Below are positions 4,282-59,692 of a stretch of 59,692 nt of DNA, one piece after another. Under the pieces are notes generated by a model, which had not been told where the DNA came from, ran no database searches, and was given only the letters and a program-made list of their open reading frames with translations. Every line of letters begins with the position of its first letter. The first letter of the stretch is position 1. This DNA is from Halopenitus malekzadehii (GTDB lineage Archaea; Halobacteriota; Halobacteria; Halobacteriales; Haloferacaceae): positions 1 to 59,692 of the forward strand of contig NZ_FNWU01000010.1 of NCBI RefSeq assembly GCF_900108505.1, in the 5' to 3' direction. A program made the position numbers and the translations under genes.

Positions 4282-4304
4282 CTATCGGCGGATTAACTGG
4301 AATT

Positions 4305-4559
4305 AGGCGCTAAGTCCCCTTCCTCAAGGAGTCGTTCGAGAGAGCTTCGCTCTCTCGTGATCACGAAAATCGAAGATTTTCGGACGACAACGCAGAGAGC
4401 GAAGCGACTGAGTAGCGTTAACGAGAGCTGCGCTCTCGTCAACGCCTGTGGAGACTGCGCTCCCTGTGGATACGCCTGTATCTGCAAAGCGCGTCGTAGA
4501 AACAGGAAGCCCCACCCTCAAGGAGCGAACCGCGTCAGCGGTGAGCGAGTAGGGTGGGG
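4305..4559. mobile_element. Composite remnant of two TnpB-type IS ends
   Basis: This non-coding gap holds IS debris. The left side begins AGGCGCTAAG, also found at the left end of the element near 30078. Hairpins at 4337-4357 (CGAGAGAGC stem), 4364-4382 (CGAAAATC stem) and 4421-4439 (ACGAGAGC stem) follow; the first two match in order, spacing and flanks the end of the TnpB element at 59365-59412. From about 4430 the plus strand reads as the degenerate last 40 codons of a TnpB (TPVETALP...AKRVVETGSPTLKER...VSE, TAG), ending in the hairpin 4510-4559 (CCCCACCCT / AGGGTGGGG). No transposase or complete TnpB remains. The two halves point in opposite directions. Confidence 0.7.
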
Positions 4560-4661
4560 TCGTTCACCTGCATATCATACGGTGTAGTAGGTGCATCCCA
4601 CGTACAATGACGATGCATATTACAAAACAGACATCTAGTAACGGCCGCTTCTCACGTCGAT

Positions 4662-11078: not shown

Positions 11079-11360
11079 ATGCGGTCCTCGCCGAGCACGT
11101 TCTCCGCCGACGAATCACGACGACGTCTCCGGACCGCAGCACGGCGGATACTCGACCAACGTGGCTCCCTCACCGTGCCCGAGTTCGCTGATCGACCGTT
11201 CCAGTCGCCGCGAGTCGATGGTGTGCTCCGTTGAATGTGTTATAAATTGACACAACGTGTATGCTGAATACAGGTCCGGATTTGTTACATCAGGACACAC
11301 GGTATCTTGGAATTCTACACGAATCATCGAGACACATACTATGAAAGAAAACGCATTTAT
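11079..11360. other. Intergenic stretch without a convincing gene
   Basis: This AT-richer stretch between divergent genes holds a TATA-like TTATAAA near 11240 and a 92-codon open frame on the minus strand (11115-11393) ending YPPCCGPETSS. The frame starts without a usable promoter spacing, has an unusual composition for a haloarchaeal protein and matches no family I recognise. I do not call it a gene. Confidence 0.4.
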
Positions 11361-11375
11361 GTCAGAATTCCTGAC
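11361..11375. promoter_or_regulatory. Inverted repeat next to the TauE promoter, possible operator
   Basis: GTCAG-AATTC-CTGAC is an inverted repeat directly downstream of the TATA-like GCATTTATG (11353-11361) and 18 bp before the TauE ATG. Its position would let a dimeric repressor block transcription start. This is inference from position and symmetry. Confidence 0.35.
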
Positions 11376-11392
11376 CGTAGCGCTAACTCGCA

Positions 11393-11743
11393 ATGAGCAC
11401 GTCCTCGCCGTCAGATACTGTCCAGAAGACCTTCCTCAAGTATCAGCACGTGTTTGTGTTCCTCGCCCCGCTGCTGTTCGTGGTGGGCGTGTATTTCGTG
11501 GCTCCGACGGAAGCGTCGGGACTGAGCTACTGGCTGGAGTACTGGTGGCTCTTCTTCGCCTTCCTCGTCGGCGCTACCATCGTCAATACGGTCGGTATCA
11601 GCGGATCCGCACTCTTCGTCCCGTTCCTCATCTTCCTGTTCCCGCTCATCGCCGGTGAGACACTCACGCCCGAGACGCTCGTGAAGGTCGGGCTCATCAG
11701 CGAGTCGTTCGGCCTCTCCAGTTCCGCGCTCGCGTTCATTCAG
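11393..11743 (+). pseudogene. TauE/SafE-family permease, N-terminal fragment
   Basis: About 117 codons encode the first half of a sulfite exporter TauE/SafE-type permease: VFVFLAPLLFVVGVYFVAP, YWWLFFAFLVGATIVNTVGISGSALFVPFLIF and LTPETLVKVGLISESFGLSSSALAFIQ, the last being a family signature. The frame then runs into the IS element and stops at 11782. The C-terminal part resumes at 13234. The two parts together give about 235 residues, against roughly 330-350 expected for haloarchaeal homologues (from memory), so about 100 central codons are missing as well as interrupted. Confidence 0.85.
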
Positions 11744-11749
11744 CCGCGG

Positions 11750-13233
11750 TTTCGAGGCGGAGCCTCCGGCCGCAAGGAGTGAGCGAGGCGAACGAGTAGG
11801 CCGGAGAGGAAGCCGACAATTCCTACGCAGACCACGGACTGTGGCCGCCTTTTCTCCCCAACGCTAATAAACCACCAGCCACACATCTGACGTATGGAGG
11901 TGCGGCGCACTGTCCCGGTCAAACTCGACGTGGACAGCGACGACGCCGCACTTCTCCGCGAAACAGTTGATGAGTTTCTGTGGGCCGCCAACTACGTCGT
12001 GGACCACGCTTGGCAGGGCGAATACAAGACGACCAGCAAGGCACAGTTGCAGGAGGAAACCTACGACGAGGTCCGCGACCGGACACGGTTGCACGCCAAT
12101 CTCGTCCAGAACGCCCGCAACAAGGCCGCCGACGCCGTTCAGGGCGTCGTCGCTCGCTGGAAACAGGGCGAGTACGCTGGCAAACCACATTTCTCGAAGC
12201 CGACCGTGGTGTACGACAAGCGGTGCGCCACGTTCCACGACGAGTACGTGTCGCTGGCGACCGTAGATGGACGTATCGAAGTCGTGTACGTTCTGCCAGA
12301 CGAGGACCGCGACACACCTCACAGCCGGTATCTCGACAACGACGACTACGTGGTGACGGGAGCGGAACTCCACAACAGGGACGGCGAGTGGTTCCTCCAT
12401 CTTCGCACAAAGGCGGTGGTGGAGTCCGACACGCCGGAACAGGCGACGACCGGGCACAGGACAGTCCTCGGCGTTGACCTCGGCGTGAACCAACTCGCGG
12501 TCACTTCGACGGGCACGTTCTGGAGCGGTCGCGAGTTCGACCACTGGCGGCGCGAGTACGAGAAACGCCGTGCATCCTTCCAGCAGTGTGGGTCACGTCA
12601 CGCCCACGAGAACATCCAGTCGGTCGGGCGCAAAGAGACGGGGCGGTTCAAACTGATGCTCCACCGGATTGCGAACGGCATCATCGAAGAAGCCGCCGAA
12701 AACGGTTGTACGGTCATCGCCTTCGAGGAGTTGACCGGCATCCGCGACCGCCTCTCGGGTGCTTCGTGGGGACACAAGTGGGCCTTTGAGCGGTTGTACG
12801 AGTACGTCGAATACAAGGCCGAACCCAACGGCATCGACGTGGAGCAGGTGGACCCGGAGAATACGTCACGCCGTTGCTCACACTGTGGGTTTACGCATCC
12901 GGACAACCGCGACGGCGAGGTGTTCGCGTGCCTGAAATGTGGCTACGAGAACCACGCTGACTACAACGCGGCGAAAAACGTCGGACTGCGGTATCTCCGC
13001 CGTAACCAAACTGGGGACGGCGGAGGCGCACCCGTAGGCGTGCGCTTGAATCGCGGGACGCTGAACGCGAACGGAGAATATGAATCTCCTGCCGAAAATT
13101 CCGGCCAGAGCGGGAGTCCACGCGAAAGCCCCATCACCAGAACTGAAGGTTCTGGTTAGCAGTCAGAAGCTCCGCTTCTGACGACACCCTCAACGAAGCG
13201 AACGGCGAAGCCGTGAGCGAGTAGGGTGGGGTA
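11750..13233 (+). mobile_element. IS605/IS1341-type element with TnpB only
   Basis: The element lies inside the TauE gene. Hairpins mark both ends: left 11764-11806 (CTCCGGCC / GGCCGGAG) and right 13185-13228 (CACCCT / AGGGTG), each with the internal motif resembling AAGGAG...GAGTAGG. A further 8 bp stem (GTCAGAAG / CTTCTGAC) sits at 13162-13182 after tnpB. There is no TnpA transposase gene, so mobility would need a transposase from elsewhere. Exact boundaries are estimates. Confidence 0.8.
11894..13159 (+). CDS. tnpB: TnpB, RNA-guided nuclease of an IS605/IS1341-type element
   Basis: A 421-residue TnpB with an apparently intact RuvC-like active site: Asp in [12 protein letters not shown], Glu in [13 protein letters not shown] and the third Asp in [13 protein letters not shown]. 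The zinc finger CSHCG...CLKCGY lies between the last two. TnpB proteins are RNA-guided DNA nucleases, ancestors of Cas12, that use an RNA made from the 3' end of the element. Here tnpB stops about 70 bp before the right end, leaving room for hairpins 13162-13182 and 13185-13228 as the RNA scaffold. The C-terminal tail after the catalytic region is Gly/Asn/Pro-rich. Confidence 0.93.
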
Positions 13234-13590
13234 GTTTACGGACTCGCTGGCTTCGGGATCGGCGAACTGGGCATCATCTCGATGCTTCGGACCGAGGTGC
13301 CGGTGAGAGTCGCCATCGGCACCAACCACATCGTCGTCGCGCTGACCGCGGTGCTGGCGTCACTGGTCCACGTCTTCGGCGGCCAGTACGTCCCCGGCGG
13401 CCACAGTATGAGCCTCGCGTCAACTCCGTGGAATATGGTCGTCTGGACGGTCCCGGCGACGGTCACCGGCGGCCAGATCGCGCCGTACATCTCAGCGACG
13501 CTGGACACGAGTCTCATCAAGGAGGGCGTCGGCGTGCTCTTTGCGATCATCGCCGTCGCGCTGTTCGTGATGGCGGCCGGTGGCTTCTAG
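13234..13590 (+). pseudogene. TauE/SafE-family permease, C-terminal fragment
   Basis: The frame resumes directly after the IS with VYGLAGFGIGELGIISMLRT, a strongly conserved TauE/SafE motif, followed by HIVVALTAVLASLVHVF, MVVWTVPATVTGGQIAPYI and a final helix VLFAIIAVALFVMAAGGF. It matches the N-terminal fragment at 11393 as the second half of one gene. No start codon with promoter precedes it, so expression is unlikely. Confidence 0.85.
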
Positions 13591-13679
13591 GTCGGCGAAC
13601 GTCCTTCGCTCGACAATCCGTGCGGACGTCACCGGATCCCCCGGGTATATTTATTCCGGTTGGTGGCAATAGTTCTCAT

Positions 13680-14321
13680 ATGACCCACTACCCGGACGGC
13701 CACCTCGGCCACATCAGCGACATCGAACGGGCAGCACAGGAGGAGCGTGATCCGCACCGACGGGCGATGCTGTGGAACTACCTCCACCACGCCGCCCTCG
13801 AAGTGAGCGGCGACTGGAAAGCCATCTTCGATCCCGAGATGATCGTCGACGATCCGCAGTACGTGATGCGTCTCGGTACGGAAGCGCCGATCGTACTCGA
13901 TGGCACCGAGGAGGTGAAGGCGTTCTACGAGGCCGGCGAGGAGGACGTCTTCCTGCTCTCCGACGAGGACGGCCACCAGTTGTTCGTCAACGAGTGGGGG
14001 ATCGCCGACTTGGCGACGTACGTCGAGTTTCTGTCCGGCGACGATCTCATCGCCGACGGGCTCGGCAAGCCGTATTACCGGAACGACGTCGAGGGAATCG
14101 ATCCCGACGCGATGTATAAGCGAACCTGCCGCCAGGCGATGTTCTGGCCCTACGACGACGACGCCCGCCTCATCGGCGAACAGGTGTATCAGCTCGAACC
14201 GTTCGCGGTGGAGCGAGTCGATCCTGGCGCCGTTCCCACGGTTGAGGAGATCGCCTCGATCACGGAACCGTACTATCCGGAGAACACCGATGGACCGACG
14301 CCCGTCCGCAGCGACACGTGA
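13680..14321 (+). CDS. Conserved protein with NTF2/SnoaL-like appearance
   Basis: A 213-residue soluble protein beginning MTHYPDGHLGHISDIERAA. The start is fixed by a TATA-like TATATTTATT about 30 bp upstream and the ATG at 13680. A helical N-terminus (LWNYLHHAALEVSGDWKAIF), then MIVDDPQYVMRL and GTEEVKAFYEA resemble the NTF2/SnoaL-like fold, in which a cone-shaped pocket binds a small molecule. The fold assignment is tentative and no catalytic residues are identified. The gene stands between the broken TauE gene and tRNA-Arg. Confidence 0.7.
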   Translation: MTHYPDGHLGHISDIERAAQEERDPHRRAMLWNYLHHAALEVSGDWKAIFDPEMIVDDPQYVMRLGTEAPIVLDGTEEVKAFYEAGEEDVFLLSDEDGHQLFVNEWGIADLATYVEFLSGDDLIADGLGKPYYRNDVEGIDPDAMYKRTCRQAMFWPYDDDARLIGEQVYQLEPFAVERVDPGAVPTVEEIASITEPYYPENTDGPTPVRSDT

Positions 14322-30028: not shown

Positions 30029-30242
30029 ACCGGACCGCAGTGAATCCCGGCACGTTTTTTTTTTTACCTGAATACAGGCGCTAAGGCCCCACCCTCAAGG
30101 AGCACTGCAGTCCGCGAAGCGGACAAGGAGCGCAGTAGGGTGGGGATACAGCGCCGTCATCGTCTCTCTTGCGTGCGATACAGCCGGTCCGCAGCCCCAC
30201 GTTCCGTAACGCTTATGTACCTACTCAGTCTATACGTAGTGT

Positions 30243-30392
30243 ATGGGCCAGTTCGAACTCGACGGTCACGAAGTCGTGGACCGCGACGTGAAAGCCACCG
30301 GCAACGGCGCTCACGTCTACGTCCCGAAACGGTGGCTCGGCGAGGACGTGAAGGTCGTTCGTGTGTCCGACCGTGGCTCAGACGACGAGTAG
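30243..30392 (+). CDS. DUF2080-type transposon-associated small protein
   Basis: A 49-residue protein: MGQFELDGHEVVDRDVKATG, then GAHVYVPKRWLGEDVKVVRV and an acidic tail. The pattern of a strand, GNGAHVYVPKRW and LGEDVKVV is that of AbrB/SpoVT-like swapped-hairpin proteins and matches the DUF2080 proteins commonly found just before tnpB in haloarchaeal IS1341-type elements. It ends 3 bp before the tnpB ATG. It may control tnpB expression; no function has been shown to my knowledge. Confidence 0.85.
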   Translation: MGQFELDGHEVVDRDVKATGNGAHVYVPKRWLGEDVKVVRVSDRGSDDE

Positions 30393-30395
30393 GCC

Positions 30396-31619
30396 ATGAA
30401 CTACAATTACAGGTATCGGCTCAATCCGACCGACGCCCTCAAAGAGCGGTTAGCGTGGACCGTCGATACCTGCCGGCAGGTCTACAATCACTTTCTCCAC
30501 CGACTGAACCGGGGAGACGACACCTCGGCCTACTCGGAACAGAAGCGCCTGCCGGACCTCAAGGACTGGTGGACCGACCTGAAAGACGTTCACTCGAAAG
30601 TCCTTCAGAAAGTCGTTCAGCGGTTGTACGACAACCTCTCGACCCTTCGCGGTCGCAAAGACAACGGCTACCGCGTCGGCACCCTCAACTGGAAGGGACC
30701 GGACGAGTACCGCAGTTTCACCTACAGTCAATCCGGCTTCGAACTCAAGAACACGAGTGGTCGGACGCGACTGTGGCTCTCGAAACTCGGCGAGATACCG
30801 CTCACCCTCCACCGCGACCTGCCCGACGACGCCGACGTGAAGACCGTCACTGTCAAGCAGGAACCCACCGGGGACTGGTACGCCATCCTCGGCGTCGAAA
30901 CGCCCGACGACCCGCCCGAGAAACCCGACGAACTCACCGACGTAGTGGGCATCGACGTAGGTGTCCTGAAGTACGCCCACGACACCGACGGAACCGCCGT
31001 CGAGTCGCCGGACCTCGGCGACGAACGCGAGCGGTTGAAACGCGCCCAACGCAACCTCTCACGGAAGGAGCACGGGTCGAACAACTACCGCGACCAACAG
31101 CGTACCGTCGCCCGACGCCACGCCGACCTGAAACGGAAACGCCGCGATTTCCTCCACAAACTCTCGGCGTACTACGCCCGGGAGTACGACCTCGTGGCCG
31201 TCGAAAATCTCGACGCGAAGGGGTTGATCGAACTCCCCGGCAACTCCCGCAACCGGGCCGGAGCAGCGTGGGGAACATTCCTGCGGATGCTCGAATACAA
31301 GTGCAAACGCGACGGCACGCACTTCGTCGCGGTCGAGCCGGCAGGGACGACCAAGGAGTGCGCGGCCTGCGGTGTCGAGACAGACAAGCCGTTGTGGGTC
31401 CGCGAACACTCCTGCCCGGCGTGTGGGTTCACGGCGGACAGGGATTGGAACGCGGCCTACAACATCCTCGTTCGCGGTCTCAAGCAAGTAGGGACGGGCT
31501 GTCCCGAATCAACGCCTGCGGAGACTGCGCTCCCTACGGGGACCACTTCGGTCCCTGCAAAGCGCGTCGTGGAAACAGGAAGCCCCACCCTCAACGAGCG
31601 AGCGAAAGCGAGCGAGTAG
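30396..31619 (+). CDS. tnpB: TnpB, RNA-guided nuclease of an IS1341-type element
   Basis: A 407-residue TnpB with a complete RuvC-like site: Asp in VVGIDVGVLKYA, Glu in LVAVENLDAKGL, Asp in TADRDWNAAYNIL, and the zinc finger CAACG...CPACG. The N-terminal part (NYNYRYRLNPTDALKERLAWTVDTCRQVYNHFL) is the usual start. It differs clearly from the TnpB at 11894 in size, finger spacing and neighbourhood, so the two represent different subgroups. The C-terminal 40 codons double as the 3' hairpin region that in studied TnpB systems becomes the guide RNA scaffold. Confidence 0.94.
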   Translation: MNYNYRYRLNPTDALKERLAWTVDTCRQVYNHFLHRLNRGDDTSAYSEQKRLPDLKDWWTDLKDVHSKVLQKVVQRLYDNLSTLRGRKDNGYRVGTLNWKGPDEYRSFTYSQSGFELKNTSGRTRLWLSKLGEIPLTLHRDLPDDADVKTVTVKQEPTGDWYAILGVETPDDPPEKPDELTDVVGIDVGVLKYAHDTDGTAVESPDLGDERERLKRAQRNLSRKEHGSNNYRDQQRTVARRHADLKRKRRDFLHKLSAYYAREYDLVAVENLDAKGLIELPGNSRNRAGAAWGTFLRMLEYKCKRDGTHFVAVEPAGTTKECAACGVETDKPLWVREHSCPACGFTADRDWNAAYNILVRGLKQVGTGCPESTPAETALPTGTTSVPAKRVVETGSPTLNERAKASE

Positions 31620-31663
31620 GGTGGGGAGGAAGTCACTTTCGTAAGTGCCGCGTACACCCGGAT

Positions 31664-31912
31664 ATGTCCCACGAGATCGAGAACGAAACGACGGTCAACG
31701 AGAGCTACTCGATCACGGTTCCGGCGGCGGTACGTCAAGCCGCCGGCGTCGAAGCGGGTGACAAACTCCGCTGGCACGTGGACGAGGACGGGACGATCTC
31801 GGTCGAACTCGTCAAACAGCGCTACGGCGCGTTTTCACGGCTGGATCCGGTTGACATCGGCGAATCAACCGACGCCGCGGAGGACCACGATCTCATCGCT
31901 GGGGACTCGTGA
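31664..31912 (+). CDS. AbrB/SpoVT-type antitoxin
   Basis: An 82-residue protein. The first 50 residues (ETTVNESYSITVPAAVRQAAGVEAGDKLRWHVDEDGTISVELV) are an AbrB-type swapped-hairpin DNA-binding domain. The C-terminal 30 residues (FSRLDPVDIGESTDAAEDHDLIAGDS) are acidic and would wrap a PIN toxin. The stop overlaps the toxin start (TGATG). The ATG is 38 bp after the IS right end, so the native promoter may have been replaced by the insertion. Confidence 0.88.
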   Translation: MSHEIENETTVNESYSITVPAAVRQAAGVEAGDKLRWHVDEDGTISVELVKQRYGAFSRLDPVDIGESTDAAEDHDLIAGDS

Positions 31913-32336
31913 TGTCGACGGTCGTCGTTGATGCGAACGTCCTCATCGCTGCCCGTCTCTCACGCGACCAGAACCACGAGCGAGGGACCGAGATCGCGGA
32001 CGCGATAGATCGACCCTCCCGACGGCATACGTCCTGAGCGACGTTCTCGAGGAAGTCATCAATTATCTCCAGGCGAGAGCGGGACACGACGTGGCTATCG
32101 AGACTCTTGATGCGCTCATCGAGAGCAGCGGATTCTCACTTCTGCAGACCTCAAAAGCGGATTTTAACGCCGGTCGATCGGTGTTTCGACGGTACGAATC
32201 GCTCTCGTTGACTGATGCCGTCATCGTCGCAACGATGGAGCGTGAGGGGATCGACCATCTGTACAGCTTCGACGACGGATTTGACGGGATTCCCGAACTC
32301 ACTCGTCTCACCACTCCGGATAACCCATTCGAGTGA
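31912..32336 (+). pseudogene. PIN-domain toxin, frameshifted
   Basis: The first frame starts MSTVVVDANVLIAARLSRDQNHERGTEIADAI and ends after 41 codons at TGA 32035-32037. The rest of the PIN domain continues in another frame (LPTAYVLSDVLEEVINYLQ, LTDAVIVATMEREGIDHLYSFDDGFDGI) to 32336. A net one-base loss near 32010-32025 explains the break. The acidic residues of a PIN nuclease site are all present if the two frames are joined (VVDANV, EEVINYL, LTDAVI, FDDGFD). As it stands no complete toxin can be made. Confidence 0.85.
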
Positions 32337-59358: not shown

Positions 59359-59692
59359 GTGGTTCGAGAGAGCGTTGCTCTCTCGTCATCCCGAGAGCGC
59401 ATCGCGCTCTCGGACGACCCCGAGGCTTCCCGTTTCCACGACATGACTTGCAGACACGGACTCGAAGTGAGTCGTGTCCGTAGCGGTCACTGTCTCCACG
59501 GGCGTGTCTTCGGGCCATCCCAGCCCTAATTCAGCAAAGCCTCTCTGCAAGACGTTCATCGCCGCATTCGCGTCCCTGTCCGTCTCAAATCCACATGACG
59601 GACAGGAGTGTTCCCTGACCCAGATGGATTTCGCTGTCTCCACACCGCACGACGCGCATTCTTTGCTCGTGCCTCGGGCTTTGACCTGCACG
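59359..59692 (-). mobile_element. TnpB-type IS element, 3' end (extends past window)
   Basis: The element reads leftwards. Two hairpins mark its 3' end: 59392-59412 (stem CGAGAGCGC) within the last codons of tnpB, and 59365-59385 (stem CGAGAGAGC) right after the stop. The same pair occurs in the remnant at 4337-4382, the first stem identical and the second changed in both arms. The boundary with the kinase gene is about 59358. Confidence 0.8.
59386..59692 (-). CDS. tnpB: TnpB, C-terminal fragment (5' end outside window)
   Basis: The last 101 codons of a TnpB are visible: VKARGTSKECASCGVETAKSIWVREHSCPSCGF (zinc finger) and ETDRDANAAMNVL with the third RuvC aspartate. The tail (PEDTPVETV...VETGSLGVVRERDALSG) resembles that of the TnpB at 30396, so both belong to the same IS1341-type group. 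The first two catalytic residues lie outside the window, so integrity cannot be judged. Confidence 0.9.
   Translation of the reverse strand, partial: VQVKARGTSKECASCGVETAKSIWVREHSCPSCGFETDRDANAAMNVLQRGFAELGLGWPEDTPVETVTATDTTHFESVSASHVVETGSLGVVRERDALSG

What the first reader, a model, noticed from the sequence alone, without database searches (positions are those of the whole stretch)
30087..31626. End hairpins of TnpB elements show compensatory stem changes around a conserved loop
Five hairpins in this window share the motif order AAGGAG (or AACGAG) ... GAGTAGG while their stems differ: CCCCACCCT/AGGGTGGGG at 4510-4559, 30087-30145 and 31583-31626, CACCCT/AGGGTG at 13185-13228, and CTCCGGCC/GGCCGGAG at 11764-11806. 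Inner stems also change in both arms (ACCGC/GCGGT, GTCCGC/GCGGAC, ACGGC/GCCGT). In the element at 30078 the tnpB stop TAG lies inside the hairpin. The pattern suggests a structure kept by selection, either as transposon end or as the guide RNA scaffold known for TnpB.
Basis: partly seen in the sequence, partly recalled or inferred. Interest (0 to 1): 0.72.

Follow-up and report, generated by a model that had tools for sequence, protein, structure and literature searches.

The report
Paired hairpin ends of TnpB transposons
The hairpins are the structurally conserved ends of haloarchaeal IS200/IS605-type jumping genes, and the right-hand one is also the last hairpin of the predicted guide RNA; this is a known kind of structure, but following it outward uncovered widespread relatives of these elements that appear to carry only the RNA and no protein gene.

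Summary
Three IS200/IS605-type elements lie in this haloarchaeal window: A (about 30068-31636, with tnpB), B (about 4298-4567, no tnpB) and C (hairpin 11764 to 13239, with tnpB). In 71 right-end and 36 left-end hairpins from related loci, stems change by compensation. A tree-aware null never reached the observed pairing in 400 simulations for the right outer stem, the right inner stem and (counting G-U) the left stem. The two ends of an element almost never share a stem sequence (1 of 28) but share an internal loop, CAA[G/C] against GTA. That points to recognition of shape and loop at DNA level, most likely by TnpA. Stems just upstream of the right end also covary, as in a TnpB guide RNA (ωRNA), so the right hairpin probably serves both purposes. 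A kink-turn reading failed: its G.A pairs are lost in several subtypes. The window hairpins are members of a known kind. A by-product is more unusual: tnpB-less elements with a structured 5' RNA domain fused to the scaffold, in 58 of 391 class genomes, with 61 strong copies in one genome and no Rfam family.

The parts
30068..31636 (+). Element A, IS200/IS605 type (IS1341 group); left edge approximate
   Evidence: Right junction fixed by comparison with genome G011, where homology resumes at 31637; left edge by analogy with other left ends
30077..30155 (+). Left end of A: outermost stem GGCGCT/AGCGCC around the hairpin
30087..30145 (+). Left-end hairpin of A (CCCCACCCT/AGGGTGGGG, loop CAAG..GTA)
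30243..30392 (+). DUF2080-like small ORF
   Evidence: Just under Pfam cut-off, E 3e-4
30396..31619 (+). tnpB of A
   Evidence: PF07282, PF01385, PF12323
31490..31582 (+). Predicted ωRNA scaffold stems upstream of the right end
   Evidence: Covariation in 46 relatives
31583..31626 (+). Right-end hairpin of A, contains the tnpB stop; also 3' hairpin of the predicted ωRNA
4298..4567 (+). Element B, tnpB-less: 5' half of a left end fused to scaffold and right end
4510..4559 (+). Right-end hairpin of B
11764..11806 (+). Left-end hairpin of C
   Evidence: Homologous left end in G011 with compensatory change
11894..13159 (+). tnpB of C
   Evidence: PF07282, PF01385
13134..13184 (+). Double-hairpin insert splitting the 5' arm of C's right end
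   Evidence: Absent from the G011 relative; inverted repeats
13185..13228 (+). Right-end hairpin of C
   Evidence: element ends at about 13239

Best explanation
The hairpins are the subterminal left and right ends of IS200/IS605-family elements. As single-stranded DNA, each folds into a stem with an asymmetric internal loop (5'-CAA[G/C] opposite GTA-3') that a TnpA transposase acting in trans would recognise by shape and loop rather than by stem sequence (inferred). The right-end hairpin is probably transcribed as well, as the 3' hairpin of the TnpB guide-RNA (ωRNA) scaffold, just before the guide that starts at the element's right edge (inferred from covariation and from published haloarchaeal ωRNAs). 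Shown: the hairpins, their compensatory changes, and the loop shared by both ends. Selection on both roles explains stems that change in both arms around a constant loop.
For: Tree-aware null, 400 simulations: right outer stem 608/639 Watson-Crick cells against 510±35 (none reach it); right inner stem 288/294 against 242±25 (none); left middle stem 274/279 with G-U against 250±11 (none). Slid-register controls are not above the null on pairing. In 28 elements with both ends read, stem arms match in only 1, yet the loop is the same; GTA on the 3' side in 71/71 right ends and 33/36 left ends. TnpA-bearing elements in the same genome carry such ends. Scaffold stems upstream of the right end covary in 46 relatives. 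Protein domains. Expressed haloarchaeal ωRNAs with a right-end hairpin: PMC12558985; processed sotRNAs: PMC8303175.
Against: No transposition or RNA data for this genome. Per-pair significance is modest because few columns vary (p 0.0025-0.04); in the all-pairs R-scape-like test the best expected pair had E about 0.1. The left-end outermost stem is weaker (18/400). Several right-end subtypes lose part of the loop (CA only, or a plain hairpin), so it is not absolutely required. TnpA binding to this loop is inferred by analogy with IS608/ISDra2.
Confidence: 0.88

Rival explanations
1. The hairpins are kept only as DNA ends for TnpA; their presence in the transcript is incidental.
For: The same loop is found at left ends outside the predicted ωRNA.
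Against: Scaffold stems directly upstream of the right end covary independently, and expressed haloarchaeal ωRNAs include a right-end hairpin (PMC12558985).
Confidence: 0.2
2. The hairpins are kept only as RNA (ωRNA scaffold).
For: Covariation next to the right end.
Against: Left ends share loop and covary although they lie outside the ωRNA.
Confidence: 0.04
3. The loop is a kink-turn bound by L7Ae.
For: GA opposite GA next to an AAG/AAC bulge in 53 of 71 right ends.
Against: Several subtypes lose the G.A pairs but keep the rest; an unpaired U on the other strand is not canonical.
Confidence: 0.06
4. The conserved motif reflects the tnpB C-terminal codons (…SE-stop), not structure.
For: GAG-TAG encodes the last residue and stop of many TnpBs, including A.
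Against: Left ends and tnpB-less elements keep it without any tnpB frame; stems change by compensation.
Confidence: 0.02

Closest known systems
IS200/IS605 family (IS608, ISDra2; IS1341 group)
   Same: tnpB with OrfB_IS605 and TNB domains, subterminal hairpins at both ends, insertion next to a short target (TTAC for A)
   Different: Element A lacks its own tnpA; the internal loop CAA[G/C]/GTA with frequent tandem G.A positions is a feature of this haloarchaeal group
Haloarchaeal ωRNAs / sotRNAs (Rfam sot2652 RF02657, sot0042 RF02656)
   Same: RNA at the 3' end of tnpB with a right-end hairpin
   Different: The window's elements do not match Rfam even at E 5, so they form a separate sequence group
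PATEs of Haloquadratum walsbyi (PMC3119063)
   Same: tnpB-less elements with near-terminal palindromes related to IS605-type transposons; HqIRS71 is described as non-coding with the C-terminal segment
   Different: Element B and the RNA-only elements found here keep a complete ωRNA scaffold, a concept later than that paper

Membership tests
IS200/IS605 (IS1341 group) | TnpB with OrfB_IS605 and TNB domains | tested here: met
   PF01385 and PF07282 above curated cut-offs for A and C
IS200/IS605 (IS1341 group) | Subterminal hairpins at both ends | tested here: met
   in B the left-end hairpin has lost its 3' arm
IS200/IS605 (IS1341 group) | Y1 TnpA transposase available | tested here: met
   Not in A, B or C, but two intact tnpA-tnpB elements with an A-like TnpB lie in the same genome; both have right ends of this type and one also a matching left end
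IS200/IS605 (IS1341 group) | Insertion 3' of a short target without target duplication | tested here: inconclusive
   Right junction of A fixed against a same-genus genome with TTAC; left flank not homologous there
TnpB ωRNA | Structured, covarying scaffold just upstream of the right end | tested here: met
TnpB ωRNA | Transcribed guide RNA directing cleavage by TnpB | not testable with these tools
   Needs RNA-seq and a nuclease assay
Rfam sot2652 (RF02657) | Match to the covariance model | tested here: not met
   No match at gathering score or at E up to 5
Kink-turn | 3-nt bulge followed by G.A and A.G pairs, kept in all members | tested here: not met
   Lost in several right-end subtypes

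The most novel reading that the evidence does not exclude
Haloarchaea carry RNA-only IS200/IS605 elements: left end, promoter, a dedicated structured 5' RNA domain, ωRNA scaffold, right-end hairpin and a guide taken from the insertion site, with no protein gene. They would be stand-alone guide RNAs that borrow TnpA for movement and TnpB for cutting, spread to dozens of copies and guides per genome. Element B in this window would be a simple relative without the extra domain.
Probability: 0.45. Interest if true: 0.75.

Novelty: new member of a known kind. Interest (0 to 1): 0.4.

Why it matters
The hairpins give a clear case of one sequence apparently under selection both as a DNA end and as guide-RNA scaffold, and they belong to an ωRNA group that Rfam does not recognise. 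The RNA-only elements found on the way would matter more: they would make the idea of trans-acting, guide-only transposons testable in organisms that can be grown and engineered.

Tried and rejected
Kink-turn/L7Ae reading of the loop: attractive in the commonest types, rejected as the general design because several subtypes replace or lose the G.A pairs. Coding constraint as the cause of the GAGTAG motif: rejected because left ends and tnpB-less elements keep it outside any tnpB. The idea that left and right ends share a stem sequence: arms match in only 1 of 28 elements. All-pairs covariation test: underpowered, so helix-level statistics were used. First guess that the 76-nt low-score hits of model R1 were tRNAs: ARAGORN found none, and they proved to be a second class of elements. 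Small-ORF reading of the new 5' domain: no third-position excess. A two-sided empty site for element A was not found. Literature searches for TnpB with kink-turn gave only the unrelated IS607 RAGATH-18 RNAs.

Full report
What is there. The window is haloarchaeal and holds three IS200/IS605-type elements on the + strand. Element A has a left-end hairpin (30087-30145), a small DUF2080-like ORF, a 407-aa TnpB (30396-31619) and a right-end hairpin (31583-31626). Element C has a left hairpin (11764-11806), a 421-aa TnpB and a right hairpin (13185-13228). Element B (about 4298-4567) has no tnpB: it joins the 5' half of a left end to the 3' scaffold and right hairpin. All five hairpins exist as described, apart from small motif errors. 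Four of the five fold far better than shuffled sequence; 11764 does not by itself, but a related left end in a same-genus genome shows a compensatory stem change.

Covariation. From 80 haloarchaeal loci encoding relatives of TnpB A, plus copies in the same genome and in tnpA-bearing elements, I extracted right ends by the flanking GGAAG and TTCA motifs and left ends by GGCG-like and ATACA/ATGAA motifs, without requiring pairing. Right ends were further limited to those whose 5' arm begins CCC. A null that redistributes each column's parsimony changes over the TnpB tree was simulated 400 times. Right outer stem: 608 of 639 Watson-Crick cells, null 510±35, none reach it. Right inner stem: 288 of 294, null 242±25, none. 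Left middle stem: 274 of 279 counting G-U, null 250±11, none; counting Watson-Crick only, 9 of 400 reach it. Left outermost stem GGCGCT/AGCGCC: weaker (18 of 400), but one pair shows C-G, A-T and G-C. Registers slid by one column did not exceed the null on pairing. This is an approximation to R-scape, not R-scape itself, and the stricter all-pairs version was underpowered.

DNA end or RNA scaffold? Probably both. The internal loop (C, A, A or C, then mostly G or C on the 5' side; GTA on the 3' side) is shared by left ends, which lie outside the predicted ωRNA, and right ends. In 28 elements with both ends read, the stem arms match in only one, element A itself. So stem sequence is free while loop and shape are kept, as expected for recognition of folded single-stranded DNA by TnpA (inference, by analogy with IS608 and ISDra2). 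The same genome holds two intact tnpA-tnpB elements with an A-like TnpB: both have this kind of right end, and one a matching left end. At the right end the scaffold upstream of the hairpin also covaries on its own, with A-U/G-C 24:22 at one pair and A-U, C-G and U-A at the next. Published work reports expressed or processed ωRNAs in Halobacterium and other haloarchaea, with a right-end hairpin (PMC12558985; PMC8303175). The window's elements do not match the Rfam family of those RNAs.

Loop anatomy. Many hairpins have GA opposite GA just above the loop (53 of 71 right ends), which looks like a kink-turn. Subtypes with CGCGC/GCGCG or CGC/GCG there, and subtypes with only CA, show that a kink-turn is not the shared design.

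Boundaries. In genome G011 of the same genus, sequence homologous to A's right flank resumes at 31637, after TTAC where the window has TCAC; the left flank is not homologous there. Element C interrupts a gene that is uninterrupted in G011, with about 390 bp of the gene missing next to it. C's right end is identical over 55 bp to a G011 element whose DNA is otherwise only 73% identical, except for a ~51-bp double-hairpin insert in the window copy, which explains its short 5' arm.

By-product: RNA-only elements. Searching for the ωRNA scaffold without tnpB led to elements of a few hundred bp with left end, scaffold and right end but no tnpB. One class carries a ~140-nt three-way-junction RNA directly upstream of the scaffold: 49 pairs, 94.9% of cells paired, 14 pairs with changes on both sides, none of 500 shuffles as high (shuffles do not keep relatedness), no third-codon-position excess, and a TATA-like box about 29 nt upstream of its 5' end. 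Model R1 found 27 matches over 100 bits in 15 of 391 class genomes; of the loci checked none has a tnpB between the ends, and most have scaffold and right end. A second class has an outer stem and the same GACAAGAA-loop hairpin without the middle arm, with covariation of its own, no coding signal and 357-460 bp from left to right end where both were recognised (17 of 27 loci). Model R2 finds matches in 58 of 391 genomes and 32 of 86 genera (some are Class I). One genome, Natrinema gelatinilyticum, has 61 strong copies; those read have different 5' flanks, nearly all ending TTAG, and mostly different sequences where a guide would be. Neither class matches Rfam, and the matched places in annotated plasmid records carry no feature. 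PATE HqIRS71 (PMC3119063) may be a relative. That these RNAs act as guides for TnpB in trans is inference. The window's own genome has neither class.

Verdict. The finding is real and correctly read; the hairpins are new members of a known kind. The unusual lead is the RNA-only elements, which lie outside the window.

Noticed in passing
L233 (about 1440-1900), L171, L237, L254, L262 and others (genomes G017, G004, G005, G166, G231): Class I RNA-only elements: left end, TATA-like box, ~140-nt three-way-junction RNA, ωRNA scaffold, right-end hairpin of the CAGCGAG..GAGCAGG type, no tnpB. No Rfam family.
   Followed up: yes
L294-L323; L324-L353 (G426, Natrinema gelatinilyticum); NC_019976.1:28396-28579; NZ_CP100395.1:192350-192533: Class II RNA-only elements (about 360-460 bp) with a two-stem 5' domain and a conserved ACGC-GACAAGAA-GCGT hairpin; model R2 hits 58 of 391 genomes; 61 strong copies in one genome, with different flanks and mostly different guide-position sequences; unannotated in plasmid records.
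   Followed up: partly
window 13134-13184; window about 4330-4400; scaffolds of L254 and L183: Small (~50 bp) double-hairpin inserts with variable stems sit inside end hairpins and scaffolds; similar inserts recur at like sites in other genomes. They recall the SMR-A repeats reported to target PATE palindromes (PMC3119063).
   Followed up: no
window 30243-30392: DUF2080-like small ORF of unknown function directly upstream of tnpB in element A.
   Followed up: no
window 11316-11743 and 13234-13876: Element C interrupts a membrane-protein-like gene that is uninterrupted in same-genus genome G011; about 390 bp of the gene are missing beside the element.
   Followed up: partly
window 31670-31990: A short ORF resembling an AbrB-type antitoxin, followed by the start of what looks like a PIN-type toxin gene, lies directly right of element A (read by eye, not searched).
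   Followed up: no
window 59419-59688: C-terminal tnpB fragment on the - strand at the contig end; several contigs of this assembly end in such fragments, so assembly breaks fall in these repeats.
   Followed up: no
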